Below are positions 2,577 to 30,773 of a stretch of 64,000 nt of DNA, in pieces; position 1 is the stretch's first letter, and each line of letters starts with the position of its first letter. Location: NCBI GenBank assembly GCA_034687125.1, contig JAQGBZ010000057.1:1-64000 (forward strand). Reading direction: 5' to 3'. Source of the DNA: Neelides folsomi (Eukaryota > Arthropoda > Collembola > Neelipleona > Neelidae). The position numbers and the translations under genes were made by a program. The notes under the pieces were generated by a model. The model saw only the letters and a program-made list of their open reading frames with translations. It did no database searches and was not told the origin of the DNA.

Positions 2577-3622
2577 ATGAACCGAAGTTGGATCTTATTT
2601 AGTCTTTTGAGCATAATTGTGTCTTTGGACGCTCGGACGAGTAAAAGGTGATAATTTAAACAATATAACAACATACGAGTAATTAAGAATTTTAATTTAA
2701 TTACCACCAACCTTAAATTAACATCAAATTCCTTTTAAATAGGGAAGACGATAAATATGGTCAGTATGAGCTAAGAAAGAAGCGAGATTCAATAGACGAC
2801 CTTCACTCTGTACATATTACAAACCTTTTAATTATTGATTGATTTTGATTACATAATAAAACAATAAACATAAGATATGACTAAAAGAATATTAAAGCTT
2901 ATAGAATTTTTAGCCGACAATAGATCCCTTAGCAGAGATAGCCCTTGGCTCAGCACCAATCTTTCGTCGTAAAAAAAGGGACGGCGATAACGATGAGGTA
3001 AAAATACATAATAATATATAAATATACACATTTGTATAATTTGTATTTAAAATATAAAGTACCATTTTAGTATAAACTTTAGTTAAACCACTTTGTTAAA
3101 CTTGAACAGAACGATGATGAACGGCAATTTCATGAAAAAAAAGCTGCTGGTGATTCAATTAAATCAGCAGGATATTCAATCCAAGCAGCCGCTCACGATA
3201 TTGAAGCCTCATCTGGTCGAGGGTTCAAAGGTCGAAATCAAGAAAGTTACAACACCGAAAACAATTACCGAGAAAACAACGAGAACAACTACCGAGGTGG
3301 CTACCAAACAATGAGAAAAACGATCGTTGACCAAGAATCACAAGAGTCGACAGAAGACGACGACGGCTACTCCAACAATACAGAAGATAGCGAGACTAAC
3401 AATGAGACGAGTAAGAGTCAATCAGACAATGGCCCATTGAATAAAATATTGGCCAAATCCTCGGCATTAGCAGAAGAAATCTCCACAGTTTTTAAAATCC
3501 TCCGAAAACGAGAAGAGCAACTAATGACAGAAATGGAGAATCTGAAGAAAGATGTTAAGAAGGCAATCAGAGTTTTGAAATCAGCGGAAGACGCTGCTTC
3601 AAAGAATAAAAACGAGCAGTAG
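2577..3622 (+). CDS. Secreted precursor with basic cleavage sites, unrecognised
   Basis: I do not recognise this gene. Four exons join in one frame: 2577-2647, 2743-2809, 2914-2997 and 3110-3622, giving 244 residues. All three introns are GT-AG and phase-consistent. It opens with a signal peptide (MNRSWILFSLLSIIVSLDA). Two furin-like basic sites follow, LRKKRD in exon 2 and FRRKKRD at the end of exon 3. The middle is rich in Asn, Tyr, Glu and Gly (NNYRENNENNYRGGYQ), then acidic and Ser/Thr-rich (QESTEDDDGYSNNTEDSET). The last 70 residues look like an amphipathic helix or coiled coil (AEEISTVFKILRKREEQL...). It could be a peptide-hormone precursor, a silk- or matrix-like protein, or another lineage-specific secreted protein. 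The short exons 2 and 3 are the least certain part. Confidence 0.65.
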
Positions 3623-10728: not shown

Positions 10729-13700
10729 TCATAGATAAACTTTCTTTACTGATCGCCCTGCCGTTCCGTACGCGTCGTAACTATCAAGTCCACGTCTCGC
10801 TTCTTGGGATCGCAATGTGCCAAAACTTTCTCCAACTCTTCCACGACTCATTTCTCCATCAAACCTGAGAATTTGGAATAAATAAATTATTAGAACAAGA
10901 ATTAACAAAAAATTTATATAATAAAATAAAATCAATTAAGTACTAAAGTAATTTTGACAAACCTTGAATAGGGTTCTCTGGGATAATGTGGTTGTTGAAA
11001 ATGAAACAAATTGGTTTCTTGCATAGGAGCCATTGAAGTAGCAAGGGGTTTCCCATCCAAAACCGGCTCTGCATAAGTCGCTTCCTCTTTTCCTTCCATC
11101 AAACGCCTAAAATAAATAATTATTTAATTACTTGAAAATGGTTAATTAGTAAATTGGTTTTTAATCTCGAATAAGCATTTAATCAGTCTTTTATAGTCTC
11201 TATCATAGTCTTTTTGTTAGATTACGAGTTCAAATTCAGATTTTGTCTCTGTTCAAAATAGGAGTAGTCAGTATCAGGATATGGTATGTTGTCCTCATCT
11301 TTCCTCCATCTCCGGCCGCAGAAAAAACCTCCAATGAAACCAAGGAGGATTGCCAAAAGACAACCAATGCCAACAGCAATTGACAATGTTTCTCCTGTAT
11401 AAGTTTCATTTCCTCCTAAAGGCAAACCTTCTTCCATATCCTATAAATAAACAAATACTTAAATCAGTCAATAATTAATAAAAATAAGCAATTAAACTTT
11501 AAATTAAAGACACACAAGTCGATAAACAATATGTTGATTTTACCATATTTTGTTGTGGGACTGGAGAAAAAGTTTCGGTGGATTTCGTTGTCTTTATTGG
11601 CAATTGGGGGCATTCAGAATGAAGGCCGGATCCAACAGCCTGTAAATATTCTTTTTTCCCTGCTCCCGGAATTGGTAAACATTTTTCTTCCCTCTTGTGC
11701 CAACCGCAGTAAGGACTTCGGAGTCCAACACATGCGGCACAAGAGTTCAATTTCGCTGTCCTACATTCTCGGACATTGATAAGAGTAAGTGTGTCGTCGG
11801 AACTGGCGAGGAGTCTCGGATGAGAATCCGTAAGGAGAAGGAGCTGCCGGACAGGAACTCGAGGAGGAAAAACGCGGACTTCTGATACGAAAACACTCGC
11901 ACCTCCGGTTCGCACAAATGTCAAGATCTTTCCTTCCTCTGAAATTATCATTTTCCTTGTTAGTACCAATCAATATAATCAACACCTTATTAATTATAAA
12001 TCAATTTAAATCAATTATTCGATTAAATGTGAAATATGTATGTATGTAATCAAAATTGATTAAGCTTACGAGTTCCAACAAAAATGACGTCCGTTTGAGT
12101 TCCATCGAGAGCGGATACATTGTTGTGGACGGCGATGGCCGTAAGACTTTGCCGAGTCAATGTAATAATTGGTGTCCCCCCAACGCTCCCAACGTTCTCG
12201 TCCATCAAAACGTGATTTTGAACAAAGTGATAATATTCATCGGGAAGAGTTGTGCTGTCATTTTGGCAAACTCCTGGTCTCGGTTCTGGAACTTTCTCAG
12301 GAGAAAGCGGCAACCAATGTGAAGTTGGAGTTTCTTGACCTTTGAACTTCCCATCGAACACGTCGAGAATGTCTCGGAGGGTAAAGGCGCAAACGGCTGA
12401 TCCTCCAATGCTATTCGATCCTGTACGGAAAACTCCGTAGATGACTTTTGATCCCTCGTTTGAGGAAGGGATTATGCCAGACAGAGATTCTAATAAAAAT
12501 TAAATATTCACAATTAAATAAAATTTTCATTAGGTAAGTAAAAATTAACACTTACGAATCTCATTGAAGGAAAATGGGAAGTCTCCTGGAACAGAGCAAT
12601 TAAGAGTGGCTTTGAAAAAACTCGTCCATTTATTTTTTCGCCCTGTTCCCCGATCGCCAGCACAAACTCGTCCAACACGGCTTAAAACTGTCTTTCCGCA
12701 ATTTTTCATTTCTTCAGCAGTTTCACGAAAGAAAAAGAATACAAAATCGTCGTTGACCATCGAACCAACAAAATTCGGAGCTAAAATAAAAAAAATCATT
12801 TAATTTGTCTTCTGTTGGTTAAATACATAATTTAAAATAAGTGAATAATTTAAATATTTTATTAATTAACTAAATTATGAATTACCATTGAGTGAGTTTA
12901 AGTCATATTGCATGGTTCGTAGAGAACCCCAACGATGAATGAGGGGATCAACTTCAGCAAAATCAGCGACGGTACCAGCAAAAACATCACCATTTTTCAA
13001 AACAATTGATGTTGAATTGTGATCAGGATCGTATGGGCAAATGCCTTGACCAGATTTTTCATCTCCATTCTGTCCATAAGTGCTGACTTTCAAAGTGTAA
13101 TTTCGACATCTCGGTTTGTAAGCGTTAGTTCCGCATACAAAAACCGAGCCATCTCCTGTAACGCTCAAGATACGAATGTAGTTCTCACAGCGTACAGGAT
13201 CCTTCCCTTTTGTCAAACACATTGAAATGTCGTGTTCATCTGAATACCACTCAAGTTTCTAAATAAAAATTAAATAATAAAATTATATATGATTATAGCT
13301 TATTATGATTTTTCTTTCTATCATTTAATTTTTAGTTGGGATTTTTGCAGACTTACGCTATTCAACTTAAGCCCAGTTGATGTCAAATTATAAACAGCAT
13401 TTCTGGCTCCGACAAGGACATTCTTTCCATCTCGAACAAAGAGACGAAAGAAGTCTGTGTAACTTCCATTTCCGTTAAATCGAACACTCCCTTCAACTGG
13501 TTCTAAAAATTAAATATTTAAACTAATATTTAATTGTGATTTTAAACAAAAAAATCAGTTTTATCATATTTGACATATGAGCTGCTTATTGGAAGAGGGG
13601 GATTAGCATTTCGAAAATAAGTTGTCAACGTGAATTTCTATATGATTTTACATGCAAATTTTTAAAAATAAACAAATTAATTAATTCTCTAAACCCCTCT

Positions 13701-13864
13701 TCCAATAAGCAGCTCGTATATGAGTAGAAAGTTTGAAAAATTCTTTTGTTTACATTACCTCTATCAGTGACCTTCGGCTTTAAATCTTCTTGCCATCCTC
13801 CGAGAGAAGGAGACGACCCAAGGAGAAGGAAGGCGAATACGCCGAAGATGAACCCACACATCAC
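10729..13864 (-). CDS. Sema1: Transmembrane semaphorin (class 1-like)
   Basis: Axon-guidance ligand or receptor. Nine exons on the minus strand: 13759-13864, 13357-13502, 12886-13258, 12556-12780, 12070-12489, 11544-11938, 11226-11440, 10963-11106 and 10729-10864. All phases agree and give 719 residues. Order: signal peptide (MMCGFIFGVFAFLLLGSS), then the Sema beta-propeller with FFRLFVRDGKNVLVGARNAV, ENYIRILSVTGDGSVFVCGT, FVFFFFRETAEE, FNEIQS and GTPIITLTRQSLTAIAV. A PSI domain follows (CRTAKLNSCAACVGLRSPYC, then GWHKREEKC). Then one membrane segment (LSIAVGIGCLLAILLGFIGG) and a cytoplasmic tail of about 130 residues ending KKVYL. There is no Ig or thrombospondin repeat, which fits invertebrate class 1. 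It is divergent from ERp57. Confidence 0.94.
13574..13719. repeat. Inverted repeat with perfect 22-nt arms in Sema intron 1
   Basis: 13579-13600 (GAGCTGCTTATTGGAAGAGG plus GG) is the exact reverse complement of 13694-13715. The match extends outward with CATAT on both sides, with a 2-nt bulge. The loop is 93 nt and AT-rich. It could fold into a long-loop hairpin. The arm length is small-RNA-like, but the loop is long for an animal microRNA. A small inverted-repeat element is another reading. Confidence 0.85.
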
Positions 13865-14684: not shown

Positions 14685-14778
14685 CATAGAGACTCTCTCC
14701 ATTTATTTGTCACATTCTAAGCCGGCGAGAGGAGAAGCCACACGACACTCTTCAGGAAGACACCCTCGGAAAAGGATC

Positions 14779-16966
14779 ATGTTAAAGGTTATCTTGTTAA
14801 GTTTGGCCCTTGGAGTGGTAGCCGTAGCAGGCGGAGAATCCGACGTTCTCGTTCTCGGTGATAGCGACTTCAACTCAAGACTCGCAGAGATTGACAATGC
14901 CCTCGTCATGTTCTATGCTCCTTGGTAAGTTAACGACGCGTGGCGTTCATGGACACCTCCAACTAATCTATTTGTCATAACAGGTGTGGACATTGTAAAA
15001 GACTGAAGCCAGAGTTTGACAAAGCAGCTGAGTCTTTGAAGGACGATGACCCCGCAGTCTCTCTTGTGAAGGTATATGGATGGACAAAAGAGCTAATTTG
15101 AATATTCTGAAGGTCATTTTGACAATAAAGCTTAATACGCATTTGACTTTCATTAGGTCGATTGTACCGAAGCTGGAAAAGATACCTGTGGGAAATTCGG
15201 CGTCTCTGGGTACCCGACCCTTAAGATCTTCAAAAACGGAGAAGTCGCTTCAGACTACAATGGCCCACGAGAAGCCAGTGAGTCATTGGCAATTAAGCCC
15301 AATTGGCAATTAGTGGTTAATTAATGGTTGTTACACCCATACTCATGCTATTTTAATTCCAGATGGTATCGTCAAATACATGAGAAGCCAAGTCGGACCA
15401 GCTTCGAAAGAGCTCAAGACCACAAAGGAAGTTGAAGCCTTTACATCAAAGGATGATGTCTCCATTGTTGCCTATTTCGTAAGAATGGATAAATATTTAT
15501 TTTAAAATTTATCACTTTTCTAATCATTTCAATGATGAATGAACTGGCCAGAGTTCTGAATTATTCAGATGAGAAACTAGTTCTAATACACTGAGATTGA
15601 ATAACTAAACTATGATAAAACTGATACTTATGGAAAGTTACAATAATTTTGCAAATAAGCTCCTATTAAAATATTTTATTCATTTATGACCATAGGGAAA
15701 AGACTCAAAGATCGAGACGGTTTACCTCAAGGCTGCTGATAAGCTTAGGGAAACTGCCAAGTTTGGATATTCCAGCGACAAAGACGTTGTGAAGGGAAAA
15801 GAAGATACTATCGTCCTCTACAGACCAAAGCACCTCGCTAACAAATTCGAGCCATCGTCTGTTGTCTATGATGGTGAACTTACGCGTGAAGATATCGAGA
15901 AGTGGGTGAATTCCGAATACCACGGTCTAGTCGGAGTCCGAACTCAAGACAGCTCAAAGAACTTCAAGGCTCCACTTGTCATCGCTTACTTTGCTGTCGA
16001 TTATAAGAAGAACCCCAAGGGCACCAACTACTGGAGAAATCGAATCCTCAAGGTCGCTCAAGGATTCAAGGGAAAATTTGCATTCGCCATTAGTAGCAAG
16101 GACGAATTCCAATATGAAATGAACGAATATGGAATTGACTTTGTTCCTTCTGAGAAGCCCATTATCACCGCCAAGAACAGCAAGAATGAGAAATTCATCA
16201 TGAGTGGAGAATTCTCCGTTGAAAAACTCCAAACCTTCTTGGATGACATTCTCGAGGGCAAATTGGAACCATTCCTTAAATCCGAAGCCATTCCTGAGTA
16301 TAACGATGGAGGAGTCAAAATCGCAGTAGGAAAGAACTTTGACGACATCGTGAAGAACAATGGAAAGGATACGCTTATTGAATTCTATGCTCCATGGTGT
16401 GGACATTGCAAGAAACTCTCACCCATCTTTGATGAGCTTGGAGAAAAGGCAAGAATTTAAAGAATTTAACACGTTTGCCTATTTAATTTAAAATTTTCAA
16501 TGATGAATGAACTGGCCAGAGTTCATAAATATAATGATGAGAAACTAGTTCTAACATATCTGAGATTTATTATATGGAAATATAAAATATTTATGGGATG
16601 TGTTGACTCGTTGTAATTGAATTCGTTTTGGTTTTAGATGAAAGGAGAAGATGTTCAAATTGTTAAGATGGATGCTACAGCCAATGATGTTCCTTCAGAT
16701 TTTGAAGTCAGAGGATTCCCTACTCTTTTCTGGATTCCAAAGGACAGGTAAACTGGGATATGAAATACCTAATGCAAATTTTAAAATATTTGTAAATGGG
16801 TGACTAATTATTTTGATTATGAAATTACAGAAGTGCAAAGGTTGTGAAATACGAAGAAGGCCGTGAGTTGAACGATTTCGTCAACTTCATTGCGAAATCA
16901 TCAACGGAGGAGTTGAAGGGATTCGACCGTTCCGGAAAACCAAAGGATGTAAAATCTGAACTTTAA
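14779..16966 (+). CDS. PDIA3: Protein disulfide isomerase A3 (ERp57/ERp60)
   Basis: ER thiol oxidoreductase that isomerises disulfides in glycoproteins with calnexin/calreticulin. Seven exons, 14779-14924, 14984-15071, 15157-15277, 15363-15478, 15696-16448, 16638-16747 and 16831-16966, join in phase to give 489 residues. Order: signal peptide ([19 protein letters not shown]), thioredoxin domain a with APWCGHCK (split by intron 1), b and b' domains, and domain a' with [14 protein letters not shown]. Both CGHC active sites are intact. The C-terminus is VKSEL, a KDEL-like retrieval signal. Intron 5 has a GC donor (AAG|GCAAGA). Introns 4 and 5 each carry a box C/D snoRNA. Upstream UPR-type sites suggest ER-stress control. 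Confidence 0.97.
15527..15602 (+). ncRNA. Box C/D snoRNA, copy 1, in ERp57 intron 4
   Basis: Box C ATGATGA at 15532-15538, D' CTGA at 15556-15559, C'-like CAGATGA at 15566-15572 and box D CTGA at 15591-15594. A short terminal stem forms from TTCAA before box C and TTGAA after box D. Guide candidates are AACTGGCCAGAGTT before D' and ACTAGTTCTAATACA before D. The second is almost fully complementary (one G-U pair) to the large-subunit rRNA stretch TTAGAACTGGT as I remember it. The sequence recurs in the next intron while the flanking intron sequence does not. Confidence 0.8.
16494..16570 (+). ncRNA. Box C/D snoRNA, copy 2, in ERp57 intron 5
   Basis: Sister of copy 1. Box C ATGATGA at 16500-16506, C' ATGATGA at 16534-16540 (a better match than in copy 1) and box D CTGA at 16560-16563. 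The D' box is degenerate (CATA). The 26 bases starting at the A before box C are identical to copy 1, as is GATGAGAAACTAGTTCTAA. The segment before D' differs. Host intron 5 has a GC-AG border. Confidence 0.8.
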
Positions 16967-17422
16967 TTGTGTCCACCGTGATAAAATAAGCTTTTTCTCT
17001 CCTATTGCGGAACAACAACCGCATTTCTTCCACCACCTCACAACTTGGATACAACGAGTTCTTTCCATGAAAAATAGAAAATGAGAAATAAAAAACATAA
17101 AATGTTGAAATGTAAGAAAAGAATCTTCAATTCATTTTATTTTTTTAAATTAAACATTTTATTTACACAAGCATCCAAACAGGTTCACAATCACAGTTCC
17201 ACTAACATCATTCATAACAATATTATTATAATCTTCATGCGGAATTATTATTCTTCGTCTTGCACATCATTTGTTTTATTTTTTAAATAGAATTGAAGTA
17301 TCGTCGAAAAAATGAATAGTAAATATTTATACATAGTTAACATCATAGTGGATGAAAATAAATTGGAGATAAAAGGCGGCGATTACTTTTTGTAAAGTTG
17401 AAAGGCGTCGGCCGAAGTTAAT
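16967..17422. other. Convergent 3' region of ERp57 and ENSA
   Basis: Between two stop codons facing each other. AAATAAA near 17085 could serve as the ERp57 poly(A) signal. No gene is seen. Confidence 0.5.
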
Positions 17423-27065: not shown

Positions 27066-28392
27066 ATGAAGGTCTTGATGATTGTCTCAGTATTTTTGGC
27101 CCTCTCGGCGGCTACCGCCTTTAAGCATGAAGAGGATCATCCTAAAAAGCACCACCAAAATAATCATCATAGACACGGGCTAATTGAATTCGAACCAACC
27201 CAAAGGTCAAAACCAGGACGAAAAACAATGGGAACAACAACGACAACTCCATTGCCAACTTCTACATCAACCATAGCCAGTACAACAGAAATAGCAAGTT
27301 CAACTCTTCCAACGAAGACTTGTCCATTCAACATTATAACACTGAGATTGAACACCGAAGACAAATGCGTAGTTCCATTATCTTCATGCGGTCAAGTAAA
27401 ATTAATTCAATATCTATTAATTCCATATTTAATCTTTGAGGGATCGATCGTAAAAGTGAAAAATGATTGCTTTCACTTTATCCAGGAAAATAATAATTAG
27501 CACTTCTTTTTAAATTAAAAGTTAGGGAAATGAGAGGAAGAGGATTTTGTAAATTATGGATTTAAATTTTGGAAGTTATTTAAGCGCAATAATTAAGTTT
27601 GTCCTCCGGACTGTGTTGAAAAGAGTAATTGAGTTGAAGAGGATGAAGTTTGTGTGATAAGCGGATTAAACTTATTAGTCGAGTGTAATTACCTCTTACA
27701 CGGAGCCTCTCCCTCTCCCATTCATTAAGGACATAATTGACTTATCTTCTCAATTACTCCTGTAAGAGGGGCCTTTCATAATAACGACAATAATTCTCCT
27801 GAAGGTAATTAAATAATAGGTGCGTGTATGTTAAAAGGACAAAGTATATCTGGAGGATCCCGAGGATCCAACCAGGCGTCTCGGATGTTTCTGCGCGTAC
27901 GGGACGATCAGGACATCCAAGTTCCCCCACGTGGGCTTCGTGGGTTGGGTCGAGGGGCAAAACATCACCGGCGGCTGCTTCCCACTCTACCATCAGGTTC
28001 CCTATATAAGAACAAACGGGAGAAAATGAGGCTTCTTCCCTCCTTTATATATACAACTAAAATGTTCAATTCGGCAGGGGCCTTGTGGCAAATCCGAGTG
28101 GCTCGTCCCGGGACGTAGCGAAATGGGAAAATGCGTTGCTCGGCAATGCCCGGAATCCAAGAACTCTTCTCAAATCGCTGTACTCAAAAATAAGAAGTGC
28201 GTTCAAACTGAAACCAAAGATTCGTGCAAAGGACTTGAAATTATGCAATTTGTTGATGAGTATGAACCAGTTTGTGTCATGCCAAACATCGAGATTAAAA
28301 CCATTGGCGGAGTTGGCAATTTACCTTGTCCGAGCGGCTACAGAAAAGCTGCGGATAGCTCAAGATGTTCAAAAATTGGAAGATTTGAATAA
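27066..28392 (+). CDS. Secreted DUF4789-like protein with mucin-like N-terminus
   Basis: Three exons, 27066-27395, 27838-27996 and 28078-28392, join in phase to give 267 residues. The signal peptide is MKVLMIVSVFLALSAATAF. A His/Lys-rich stretch follows (HPKKHHQNNHHRHG), then a Thr/Ser-rich, probably O-glycosylated linker (TTTTTPLPTSTSTIASTTE). The cysteine-rich C-terminal half starts near TCPFN and includes GCFCAYG, GGCFPLYHQGPCGKSEWLV and GKCVARQCPE. The LY-Q-GPC-EWLV and C...QCPE pattern fits DUF4789 secreted proteins of arthropods as I remember them. Function of that family is not known. Reading exon 2 in a different frame gives a longer frame without cysteines, which I rejected because the phase would not fit. 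Confidence 0.75.
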
Positions 28393-30773
28393 AATAACAT
28401 TGGGATTTGGGCAAAATGAATAAAGAATATTATCTAATCATTGGATCATTTTATTTTTAATCTAAGATAAATATAATCACAATTTTAGTTGATCTTTAAT
28501 TGGATTGTTTGCATGAGGGGAAGGGAAAATAAAAAAAGGATCTTCTTTTGATCACAGTGCTGATTTGACAATGGACGATTCAATTGAATTCATTTACTAT
28601 GGAAATTAACTTGTTTGAGGGGAAATGATCAAATTTGGTCTGAATCAAATTTTCAATTTCAATTTCCGACCATTTCCTCTCTCACCCGAATCCGCCTACA
28701 TTTTGAGTAACCTTTTTTATTAATTCTCATTTCCCGGGACGTCATTTTCTGGCAAGTGCGTGGGAGTGTGTTGGATTGAACCCAAAGTTTCCTGTGCGTT
28801 GAAGGAGGATAAAAAAACGTCGGCTTTCTTCCATGTCTTCGCTCCCATGTGAGATTTTTCCGGATTTCAATTTATTTTCTCATTTCATCATTCGACCCCC
28901 TGAGAAAACAATGGCAGGGACTTTATGAAAGAAGGGGAAGTAAAATGAAAGTAATCAGATTAGAGTGGAAGAGTTGTAATATAAATAATCTCATTGCCGG
29001 AGTCCGCTTCATCCTCTTAAACTTCCTCACCCCGTTCCTCTCTCTCTTCAACATACAAAGTCATTACCTTTCATTTACTCCGACAGCCCTCAGCGACCAA
29101 CTTGCCCTTCCATCCTCAACATAATTTAATCTCTATTACTTTTAATAAAATACTCTAACATTAAATGCTCTTAACAAATTGCTCCTACAATACCTCCATT
29201 GATCACCATTGATAGATATTAACTATTAAACCTTTTACTCCATCGTTAATTAAGAGCATAATCTGACTAATGATTGAATCAGTTTTTGGTATCAGTATTG
29301 TTTAAGATCATCTTCATTGAAGATTCACGGATTTCATCATTGGTTGCATAATTATTAATTATGAATTACCATTCTATTTTGTTATTGGATCTTTAATTCA
29401 ATGTCACTCTTAGTTAAAGTTAAAGTTATTACAATGGAATAAATGGAAGGATCAATCGTGACAGGAAAGATTGTACCCATTATGCAAGAGAACTGCGTTA
29501 CGTAAAACAACATGTAAGGAATGAGATCATGGGAGATAAAAAGATGCAGGATGTGTGGAAGTTTGTGAAAAGTATATAAATGGATTTCTATGAGGGTTTA
29601 TGACTCTGTTATTGAAGAGTAAGTGAATTGCGGATTCAATTTGTCTCCTCAATTTCCTCTTCGTCTTTCCCTTCCAGTTTCCCCTTTGGAAGTGAGGAGC
29701 ATTGGAATTGAATTCCCTTTTGACGGCCACCGAAAGGAAAAACTTCCCGATCTTCCCCCGATAAACATGTCAAAAGCTCTTTCTCCCTTTTAATCTTCAA
29801 TAAAGATTCAACTTCACCCATTCCGCCGGTCCAACAATGGGAATTACAGCACACACGCTGTACATTTCATTTTTATACGCCTTCATATCATATGCCCATA
29901 CCTTCATACTTTCCATACAAATATTCTTCATATAACAGAAAAGTATTACATATTTATTATACAGTATACCAGTATACAAGAAATACAAATATTCTTCATA
30001 TAACAGAAAAGTATTACATATTTATTATACAGTATACCAGTATACAAGAAATACAAAACTTCATCAAACCTTAATATTTATACAAAAGAAAAGTATCTTT
30101 GAGGGTGAATCCCAAACATCTCTGACATTTGTCTATACTCTAAACTTATATCACTTGTATCTTGTATGTCTATTCAAATCTTGGTTTACAAAGTACTCGA
30201 ATTTTAAAGTACAAGTTGGTACACAATTCCTGCATAAATGGAAGATGATTTACAATGGTTCATTGAGCCTTTGGAATATTGAGCTAAGGAAGAAGAAGGG
30301 CAGTTAAAGGTGAATTAAATCACATAAAAGGATTCTCACTTGAAATGAAACGAAGAGTGAAGGGAGGTAAAGAGGGGACTAGGAAGGGCCAATCAGCATG
30401 AATAATCTCAACCACCACTTTGCTTACACATACGCACACTTTATAGAAATACTTTACACGTTTACACTCCCCGATTCATAATGGGAGATATCTGGACTGA
30501 GAATAGGTCGGGGTGAGGGAAGAGGATTTCCTATTTGTGAGAATCTAAAAGGTACTTCTGTTATATGTCAAGTAATGTCTATAATGCTATCCACACTATT
30601 ACCAAATTGTATCACATCCACTTTGTGTTCTTTTTAGTTAGGGTCCTTTGGGTGAGCCGGGAGTGTAGATAAGACATATAGTTAAGTATGTGAGAATTGA
30701 AAATCCTTCGTGTTGCTTCTGGTCTACTAATTCACTATACATTTTTTTCATTGCATTTTCCTCATCATTAAAG
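28393..30773. other. Intergenic 2.4 kb, no gene found
   Basis: Mostly AT-rich. Contains the 68-bp tandem duplication listed separately. Frames at 28849-29124 and 29527-29854 have no recognised product. Confidence 0.5.
29915..30058. repeat. Tandem duplication, 68-bp unit, two copies
   Basis: The unit beginning ATACAAATATTCTTCATATA at 29915 repeats at 29983 with no difference that I can see, and the first bases of a third copy follow at 30051. The unit itself holds the short palindromic pair GTATAC-CAGTATAC. The lack of differences suggests a recent duplication. Confidence 0.9.

What the first reader, a model, noticed from the sequence alone, without database searches (positions are those of the whole stretch)
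15527..16570. Sister box C/D snoRNAs in consecutive introns of the ERp57 gene
Introns 4 and 5 share about 50 conserved bases although intron sequence elsewhere does not match. The shared part has box C ATGATGA, a C' box and box D CTGA in the right order and spacing, on the host strand. Copy 1 has a clear D' CTGA and a TTCAA/TTGAA terminal stem. The guide before D (ACTAGTTCTAA) pairs with large-subunit rRNA TTAGAACTGGT with one G-U pair, from memory. The D' guide is kept in copy 1 but its D' box is lost in copy 2, so the copies may be diverging in target.
Basis: partly seen in the sequence, partly recalled or inferred. Interest (0 to 1): 0.8.

Follow-up and report, generated by a model that had tools for sequence, protein, structure and literature searches.

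The report
Twin intronic C/D snoRNA genes
Two neighbouring introns of an animal's ERp57 (protein disulfide isomerase) gene carry near-identical copies of what looks like an ordinary small nucleolar RNA gene; which RNA it acts on is not settled.

Summary
Introns 4 (15479-15695) and 5 (16449-16637) of a PDIA3/ERp57 gene share a 60-nt block, 54 of 60 identical, reached by 0 of 1000 shuffles and found at two places only in a DNA search of the 75-Mb genome. All six differences lie within 11 nt around D'/C' (probability 0.00027); box C, the 17 nt before D', the C' core, ACTAGTTCTAA and box D are unchanged. Best reading: two intronic box C/D snoRNA genes made by duplication within one host gene, a known mode. 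No Rfam family reaches threshold and no terminal stem exceeds chance. The D' element has a correctly registered 9-bp LSU match at chance level (66 of 400 shuffles). Target divergence is not supported: both guide elements are identical. The species' rDNA was not found. Ordinary, low interest.

The parts
14779..16966 (+). Host gene PDIA3/ERp57-like, 7 exons, 489 aa, two CGHC sites, ends KSEL
   Evidence: Spliced model; best PDB relative PDIA3 E 1.5e-134; two thioredoxin stretches
15479..15695 (+). Intron 4 (217 nt, GT-AG), host of copy 1
   Evidence: the four introns without the repeat are 59-85 nt
15527..15602 (+). Copy 1: candidate box C/D snoRNA
   Evidence: ends inferred from the boxes and a short stem
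15532..15538 (+). Box C ATGATGA, copy 1
15541..15555 (+). GAACTGGCCAGAGTT before D', copy 1; its last 8 nt match LSU AACTCTGG in register
   Evidence: chance level: 66 of 400 shuffles
15556..15559 (+). Box D' CTGA, copy 1
15566..15572 (+). Box C' CAGATGA, copy 1 (two mismatches to RTGATGA)
15576..15586 (+). ACTAGTTCTAA, LSU-complementary element before D, copy 1 (starts at D+5)
15591..15594 (+). Box D CTGA, copy 1
16449..16637 (+). Intron 5 (189 nt, GC-AG), host of copy 2
16495..16571 (+). Copy 2: candidate box C/D snoRNA
   Evidence: 3' end uncertain, no stem beside the boxes
16500..16506 (+). Box C ATGATGA, copy 2
16509..16523 (+). Segment before the lost D', identical to copy 1
16534..16540 (+). 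Box C' ATGATGA (perfect), copy 2
16544..16554 (+). ACTAGTTCTAA, LSU-complementary element, copy 2 (starts at D+6)
16560..16563 (+). Box D CTGA, copy 2

Best explanation
Two paralogous box C/D snoRNA genes lie in adjacent introns of an ERp57 gene. They probably arose when the snoRNA was copied from one intron into the other, and selection then held the boxes and both antisense elements while linker and flanks drifted. After splicing, each debranched intron would be trimmed to a roughly 75-nt RNA bound by SNU13/15.5K, NOP56/58 and fibrillarin at C/D. Shown: the repeat, the box layout, the host introns and the clustered divergence. Inferred: selection, expression, RNP assembly and nucleolar role. 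Target: unassigned. The likeliest is LSU rRNA, through the D' element for methylation and/or the ACTAGTTCTAA element as an off-register accessory pairing (about 0.35).
For: Introns 4 and 5 are alike only in this block; 2 places in the whole genome by DNA search. Six of six differences fall in 11 nt, P 0.00027 from 200,000 random placements; box C, C' core, D and both antisense elements are unchanged. The host introns are 217 and 189 nt against 59-85 nt for the other four. Of 15 cmscan hits at E up to 10, 10 are families that Rfam types as CD-box, and 9 of these 10 overlap the copies on the host strand, plus one scaRNA family at copy 1 (all far below gathering scores, and two of the nine take copy 2's C' for their box C). 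Duplication of snoRNAs into other introns of the same host is established (PMC2653536, passages). 95% of expressed Drosophila snoRNAs are intronic (PMC13228274, passages). The D-side conserved run ends exactly where the LSU complementarity ends.
Against: No expression data. No Rfam family at threshold. Copy 2 has no D' CTGA, and no stem of 3 bp or more within 4 nt of its boxes; copy 1's 5-bp stem is matched by 190 of 1000 shuffles, and the 7-bp stems farther out by 624 and 862 of 1000. Target matches are weak: the D' site is matched by 66 of 400 shuffles, and 80 of 400 shuffled D guides hold a canonical 9-bp site where the real ones hold none; the D duplex is off register. The species' rRNA was not found. 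No orthologue from a related species could be compared. My first odds were 0.78; the stem control lowered them slightly.
Confidence: 0.75

Rival explanations
1. An orphan C/D RNA that does not methylate: a conserved internal stem GAACUGG/CUAGUUC, or an off-register LSU pairing, makes it a folding helper or regulator.
For: The 7-bp stem is in the minimum-energy fold of both copies; 8 and 7 of 500 shuffled pairs are as stable. No canonical site of 8 bp or more (at most 1 G-U) for either D guide in recalled rRNA.
Against: Whole-fold z-scores are modest: -2.31 and -1.61 for two stretches around copy 1, -0.58 and -0.96 around copy 2. The LSU duplex (-13.9 and -13.8 kcal/mol) is more stable than the stem (-8.9). 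Conserved blocks extend beyond the stem. No covariation can be seen with two identical arms.
Confidence: 0.25
2. Copy 1 is a working snoRNA and copy 2 is a decaying duplicate.
For: Copy 2 lacks D' CTGA and any stem of 3 bp or more within 4 nt of the boxes.
Against: Copy 2 keeps box C, both antisense elements and D, and has the better C' box, while its linker and flanks differ.
Confidence: 0.25
3. Not a snoRNA: paired intronic elements that control skipping or circularisation of exon 5.
For: The elements flank exon 5, which is 753 nt and phase 0/0, so skipping would keep the frame; intron 5 has a GC donor; the copies hold mutually complementary 7-mers.
Against: Box C, C' and D in snoRNA order and spacing are not expected; direct repeats with 7-bp complements are short for this purpose; skipping would remove 251 of 489 residues.
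Confidence: 0.06
4. Chance similarity or a dispersed repeat.
For: Box motifs alone are common: 2195 C-to-D pattern places in the genome.
Against: 0 of 1000 shuffles; two places in 75 Mb by DNA search.
Confidence: 0.01

Closest known systems
Intron-encoded snoRNA paralogues from duplication within one host gene (chicken survey, PMC2653536; passages seen)
   Same: Same host gene, adjacent introns; there too many paralogues vary in sequence
   Different: Here no assigned family or target, and only two copies
U14 (SNORD14) copies in introns of the hsc70 chaperone gene (recalled; one search searched these words and gave a listing only)
   Same: Several copies of one C/D snoRNA in introns of a chaperone gene
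   Different: Different sequence and host; U14 acts on 18S (recalled)
Drosophila snoRNA:CD5a/b/c isoforms (PMC13228274, section 6)
   Same: Highly similar isoforms of one family
   Different: There CD5b and CD5c but not CD5a are predicted to guide 18S Am28; here both elements are identical in the two copies
Arabidopsis C/D snoRNAs with extra pairing outside the methylation duplex (PMC8053127, section 13)
   Same: Extra pairings of 7-15 bp for 45 of 104 sites; three guides sit by a degenerate D'
   Different: Here no primary site is established

Membership tests
Box C/D snoRNA | Box C RTGATGA near the 5' end and box D CTGA near the 3' end | tested here: met
   Both copies
Box C/D snoRNA | Internal C' and D' (often degenerate) | tested here: inconclusive
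   Copy 1: D' CTGA and C' with two mismatches; copy 2: perfect C', no D' CTGA
Box C/D snoRNA | Terminal or external stem closing the C/D kink-turn | tested here: inconclusive
   Copy 1 TTCAA/TTGAA near the boxes (190 of 1000 shuffles as good) and TTTATCA/TGATAAA farther out (624 of 1000); copy 2 none within 4 nt, 7-bp ones farther out (862 of 1000)
Box C/D snoRNA | Lies in an intron on the host strand (usual in animals) | tested here: met
   Introns 4 and 5, + strand
Box C/D snoRNA | Stable 60-90-nt RNA bound by fibrillarin, NOP56/58 and SNU13 | not testable with these tools
   No RNA or protein data
Box C/D methylation guide | At least 9 bp next to D or D' with the target inside the duplex at D+5 | tested here: inconclusive
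   D guides: none of 8 bp or more. D' guide: one 9-bp LSU site, but 66 of 400 shuffles do as well; recalled yeast rRNA used, own rRNA not found
   Duplex starts at D+5 (copy 1) or D+6 (copy 2)
Any Rfam 15 snoRNA family | Score at or above the gathering threshold | tested here: not met
   0 matches in 64 kb; best C/D hit in 14700-17000 has 24.1 bits against 44 needed

The most novel reading that the evidence does not exclude
A twin C/D snoRNA whose conserved 11-nt element pairs with LSU at a register that does not allow methylation, so that it acts as an rRNA-folding helper, using a built-in copy of the target motif (GAACUGG) to keep the element closed until rRNA displaces it.
Probability: 0.08. 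Interest if true: 0.45.

Novelty: new member of a known kind. Interest (0 to 1): 0.2.

Why it matters
It adds an unassigned pair of C/D snoRNA candidates in a gene for an ER chaperone. Two library searches (snoRNA, intron, PDIA3, host gene, 4 papers; snoRNA, protein disulfide isomerase, introns, host gene, 2 papers; listings only) showed no title or abstract start that treats it as a snoRNA host; most subscription journals are not in that library. The paralogue pair separates what is held from what drifts, which makes a target test simple: both copies keep the same two antisense elements. It is a useful annotation rather than a surprise.

Tried and rejected
Rfam at gathering threshold: nothing; at E up to 10: weak hits only. 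More family members in the genome: a DNA search gave the two copies only. Pattern TGATGA-N2..16-TGGCCAGAG gave 5 places (reversed control 0), the two copies and three others (L012, L015, L016) that I did not examine further. Pattern AGTTCTAA-N0..7-CTGA gave 51 places, fewer than its reversed control (119). The 30 loci fetched for it (L017-L046) were read for a box C within one mismatch in the 110 nt ending at D (one search had read the + strand only; 21 of 51 places not read). Besides the two copies, L045 (minus strand) has a perfect ATGATGA and seven loci (L021, L027, L032, L033, L040, L041, L044; L032 and L033 show the same place) have a one-mismatch box; all set aside as chance without further test.

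Own rDNA: 5.8S family 0 matches (its control genomes are prokaryotes, so its power here is unknown), recalled 145-nt 25S core 0 matches (the tool notes that an empty answer without a positive control shows nothing), 24-nt LSU pattern with up to 2 mismatches 0 matches. 18S was asked once and not answered. Eukaryotic LSU in viral contigs: 0 in three scans; genome contigs: one, L011. snRNA targets with recalled human U1, U2, U4, U5, U6: at most 9 bp with 2 G-U (U5, D' guide). Literature by guide sequence: 7 listed, none a snoRNA guide match judging by titles. Searches on U14/hsc70 and on invertebrate snoRNA duplication gave listings that I did not use.

A simple C/D scan of the window (C' within one mismatch, stem of 4 bp beside the boxes) missed both copies and gave one minus-strand place, 27087-27170, opposite an open reading frame. 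One search shows that copy 1's C' has two mismatches and that copy 2 has no stem beside the boxes. So the copies are not textbook in every feature.

Full report
Setting. The window is part of a 75-Mb, 840-contig genome, by its genes an animal: Pfam finds homeodomain, semaphorin, SMN and NPR2 domains among the eight sequences scanned. The species was not identified. The gene at 14779-16966 (+) splices into 489 aa with two CGHC sites and a KSEL end; its best solved relative is PDIA3/ERp57, E 1.5e-134. Introns are 59, 85, 85, 217, 189 and 83 nt; intron 5 has a GC donor.

Observation. Introns 4 and 5 share a 60-nt ungapped block with 54 identities. Their local alignment scores 44, against 6 to 11 for the eight comparisons of introns 4 and 5 with introns 1, 2, 3 and 6; 0 of 1000 shuffles reach it, maximum 16. 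A DNA search of the whole genome finds these two places only. Among the 20 of 23 window repeat families shown (30 nt or more), this is one of two pairs of 60 nt or more; the other is a 68-nt tandem duplication.

What is kept. Identical between copies: TTTCA, box C ATGATGA, the following ATGAACTGGCCAGAGTTC, the C' core GATGAG, AAACTAGTTCTAA, and CTGAGATT with box D. All six differences in the block fall within 11 nt around D'/C'; random placement does so with probability 0.00027. The 4 (copy 1) or 5 (copy 2) nt before box D also differ, and the rest of the introns aligns only patchily, mostly through A and T. I read this as selection on boxes and antisense elements after a duplication; partial gene conversion cannot be excluded with two sequences.

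Class. Box layout, size (about 75 nt), intronic place and host strand fit a box C/D snoRNA. The boxes alone are weak evidence: 2195 places in the genome match a bare C-to-D pattern, against 536 for the reversed control. Rfam has no match at threshold. Of 15 hits at E up to 10 in 14700-17000, 10 are typed CD-box and 9 of these overlap the copies on the host strand, with one more scaRNA family at copy 1; the tenth, SNORD12, lies on the minus strand in exon 5. The best has 24.1 bits where 44 are needed, and it and SNORD69 take copy 2's C' as box C. Stems do not help: copy 1 has TTCAA/TTGAA near its boxes (190 of 1000 shuffles as good), copy 2 has none of 3 bp within 4 nt, and the 7-bp stems farther out are matched by 624 and 862 of 1000 shuffles. 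My own simple scan missed both copies.

Target through D. ACTAGTTCTAA pairs with TTAGAACTGGT (10 Watson-Crick, 1 G-U) at recalled yeast 25S 2102-2112 and in an annelid LSU piece on a public contig (L011), predicted -13.9 and -13.8 kcal/mol. The duplex starts at D+5 in copy 1 and D+6 in copy 2. The Arabidopsis survey required 2 and 3 bp on the two sides of the site, found at least nine consecutive pairs for 100 of 104 sites, and remarks on two pairings that start at position 4 (PMC8053127; passages, section 13). Chance: 12 of 300 shuffles of a 20-nt slice ending one base before D and 8 of 400 of the guide up to D with the start limited to D+1..D+6 do as well. In 60 shuffles of the whole copy-1 RNA, 13 hold at least one such duplex and 1 holds two; each real copy holds two, the second far from D and against LSU 3034-3044. 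In favour of a real contact, the conserved run ends exactly where the complementarity ends.

Target through D'. In copy 1 the D' element forms 9 bp (8 Watson-Crick, 1 terminal G-U) with recalled LSU AACTCTGGT in the correct register, pointing at C851 of the recalled yeast sequence; 66 of 400 shuffles do as well, so it is chance level. Its predicted energy is -14.5 kcal/mol. Copy 2 keeps the element but has CATA for D'; guides beside a degenerate D' are known (PMC8053127, section 13). Neither D guide has a canonical site of 8 bp or more with at most one G-U, though 80 of 400 shuffled D guides have one of 9 bp. snRNAs give at most 9 bp with 2 G-U (U5) (recalled human sequences).

Internal stem. 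GAACUGG before D' can pair with CUAGUUC before D in both copies; 8 and 7 of 500 shuffled pairs are as stable. GAACUGG equals part of the LSU target motif and could compete with rRNA, but the predicted LSU duplex is more stable. With identical arms in both copies there is no covariation to test it.

Known kind. In the chicken survey almost all snoRNA paralogues are ascribed to duplication within a host gene (PMC2653536, passages). In Drosophila 95% of expressed snoRNAs are intronic, and similar isoforms need not share predicted sites (PMC13228274, passages and section 6). Two library searches showed no paper that treats PDIA3 or protein disulfide isomerase as a snoRNA host (titles and abstract starts only). 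I therefore call this a new member of a known kind with an open target.

Limits. Own rRNA was not found (5.8S; LSU; none of these had a positive control in an animal) and 18S did not complete. No related animal genome and no RNA data were available.

Noticed in passing
13575-13600 and 13694-13719: 26-nt inverted repeat, 96% complementary, 93 nt apart, beside the minus-strand semaphorin-domain gene.
   Followed up: partly
29898-30033: 68-nt tandem duplication, 88% identical.
   Followed up: no
16449: ERp57 intron 5 uses a GC donor; with intron 4 it flanks a symmetric 753-nt exon 5 whose skipping would keep frame.
   Followed up: partly
L011:1-2000: A contig filed under a tubeworm endosymbiont MAG holds animal-type 28S rDNA interrupted near position 467, apparently at the site where R2 elements insert (site and likeness recalled, not tested).
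   Followed up: no
L032:1501 and 1710 (G000:C38:255328 and 255537): Two similar stretches about 209 nt apart holding AGTTCTAATTGACTGA, without a perfect box C; looks like a local duplication.
   Followed up: partly
G000 (whole assembly): No 5.8S or LSU rDNA came up in three searches: the rDNA may be left out of the assembly, be withheld, or be missed by these searches.
   Followed up: partly
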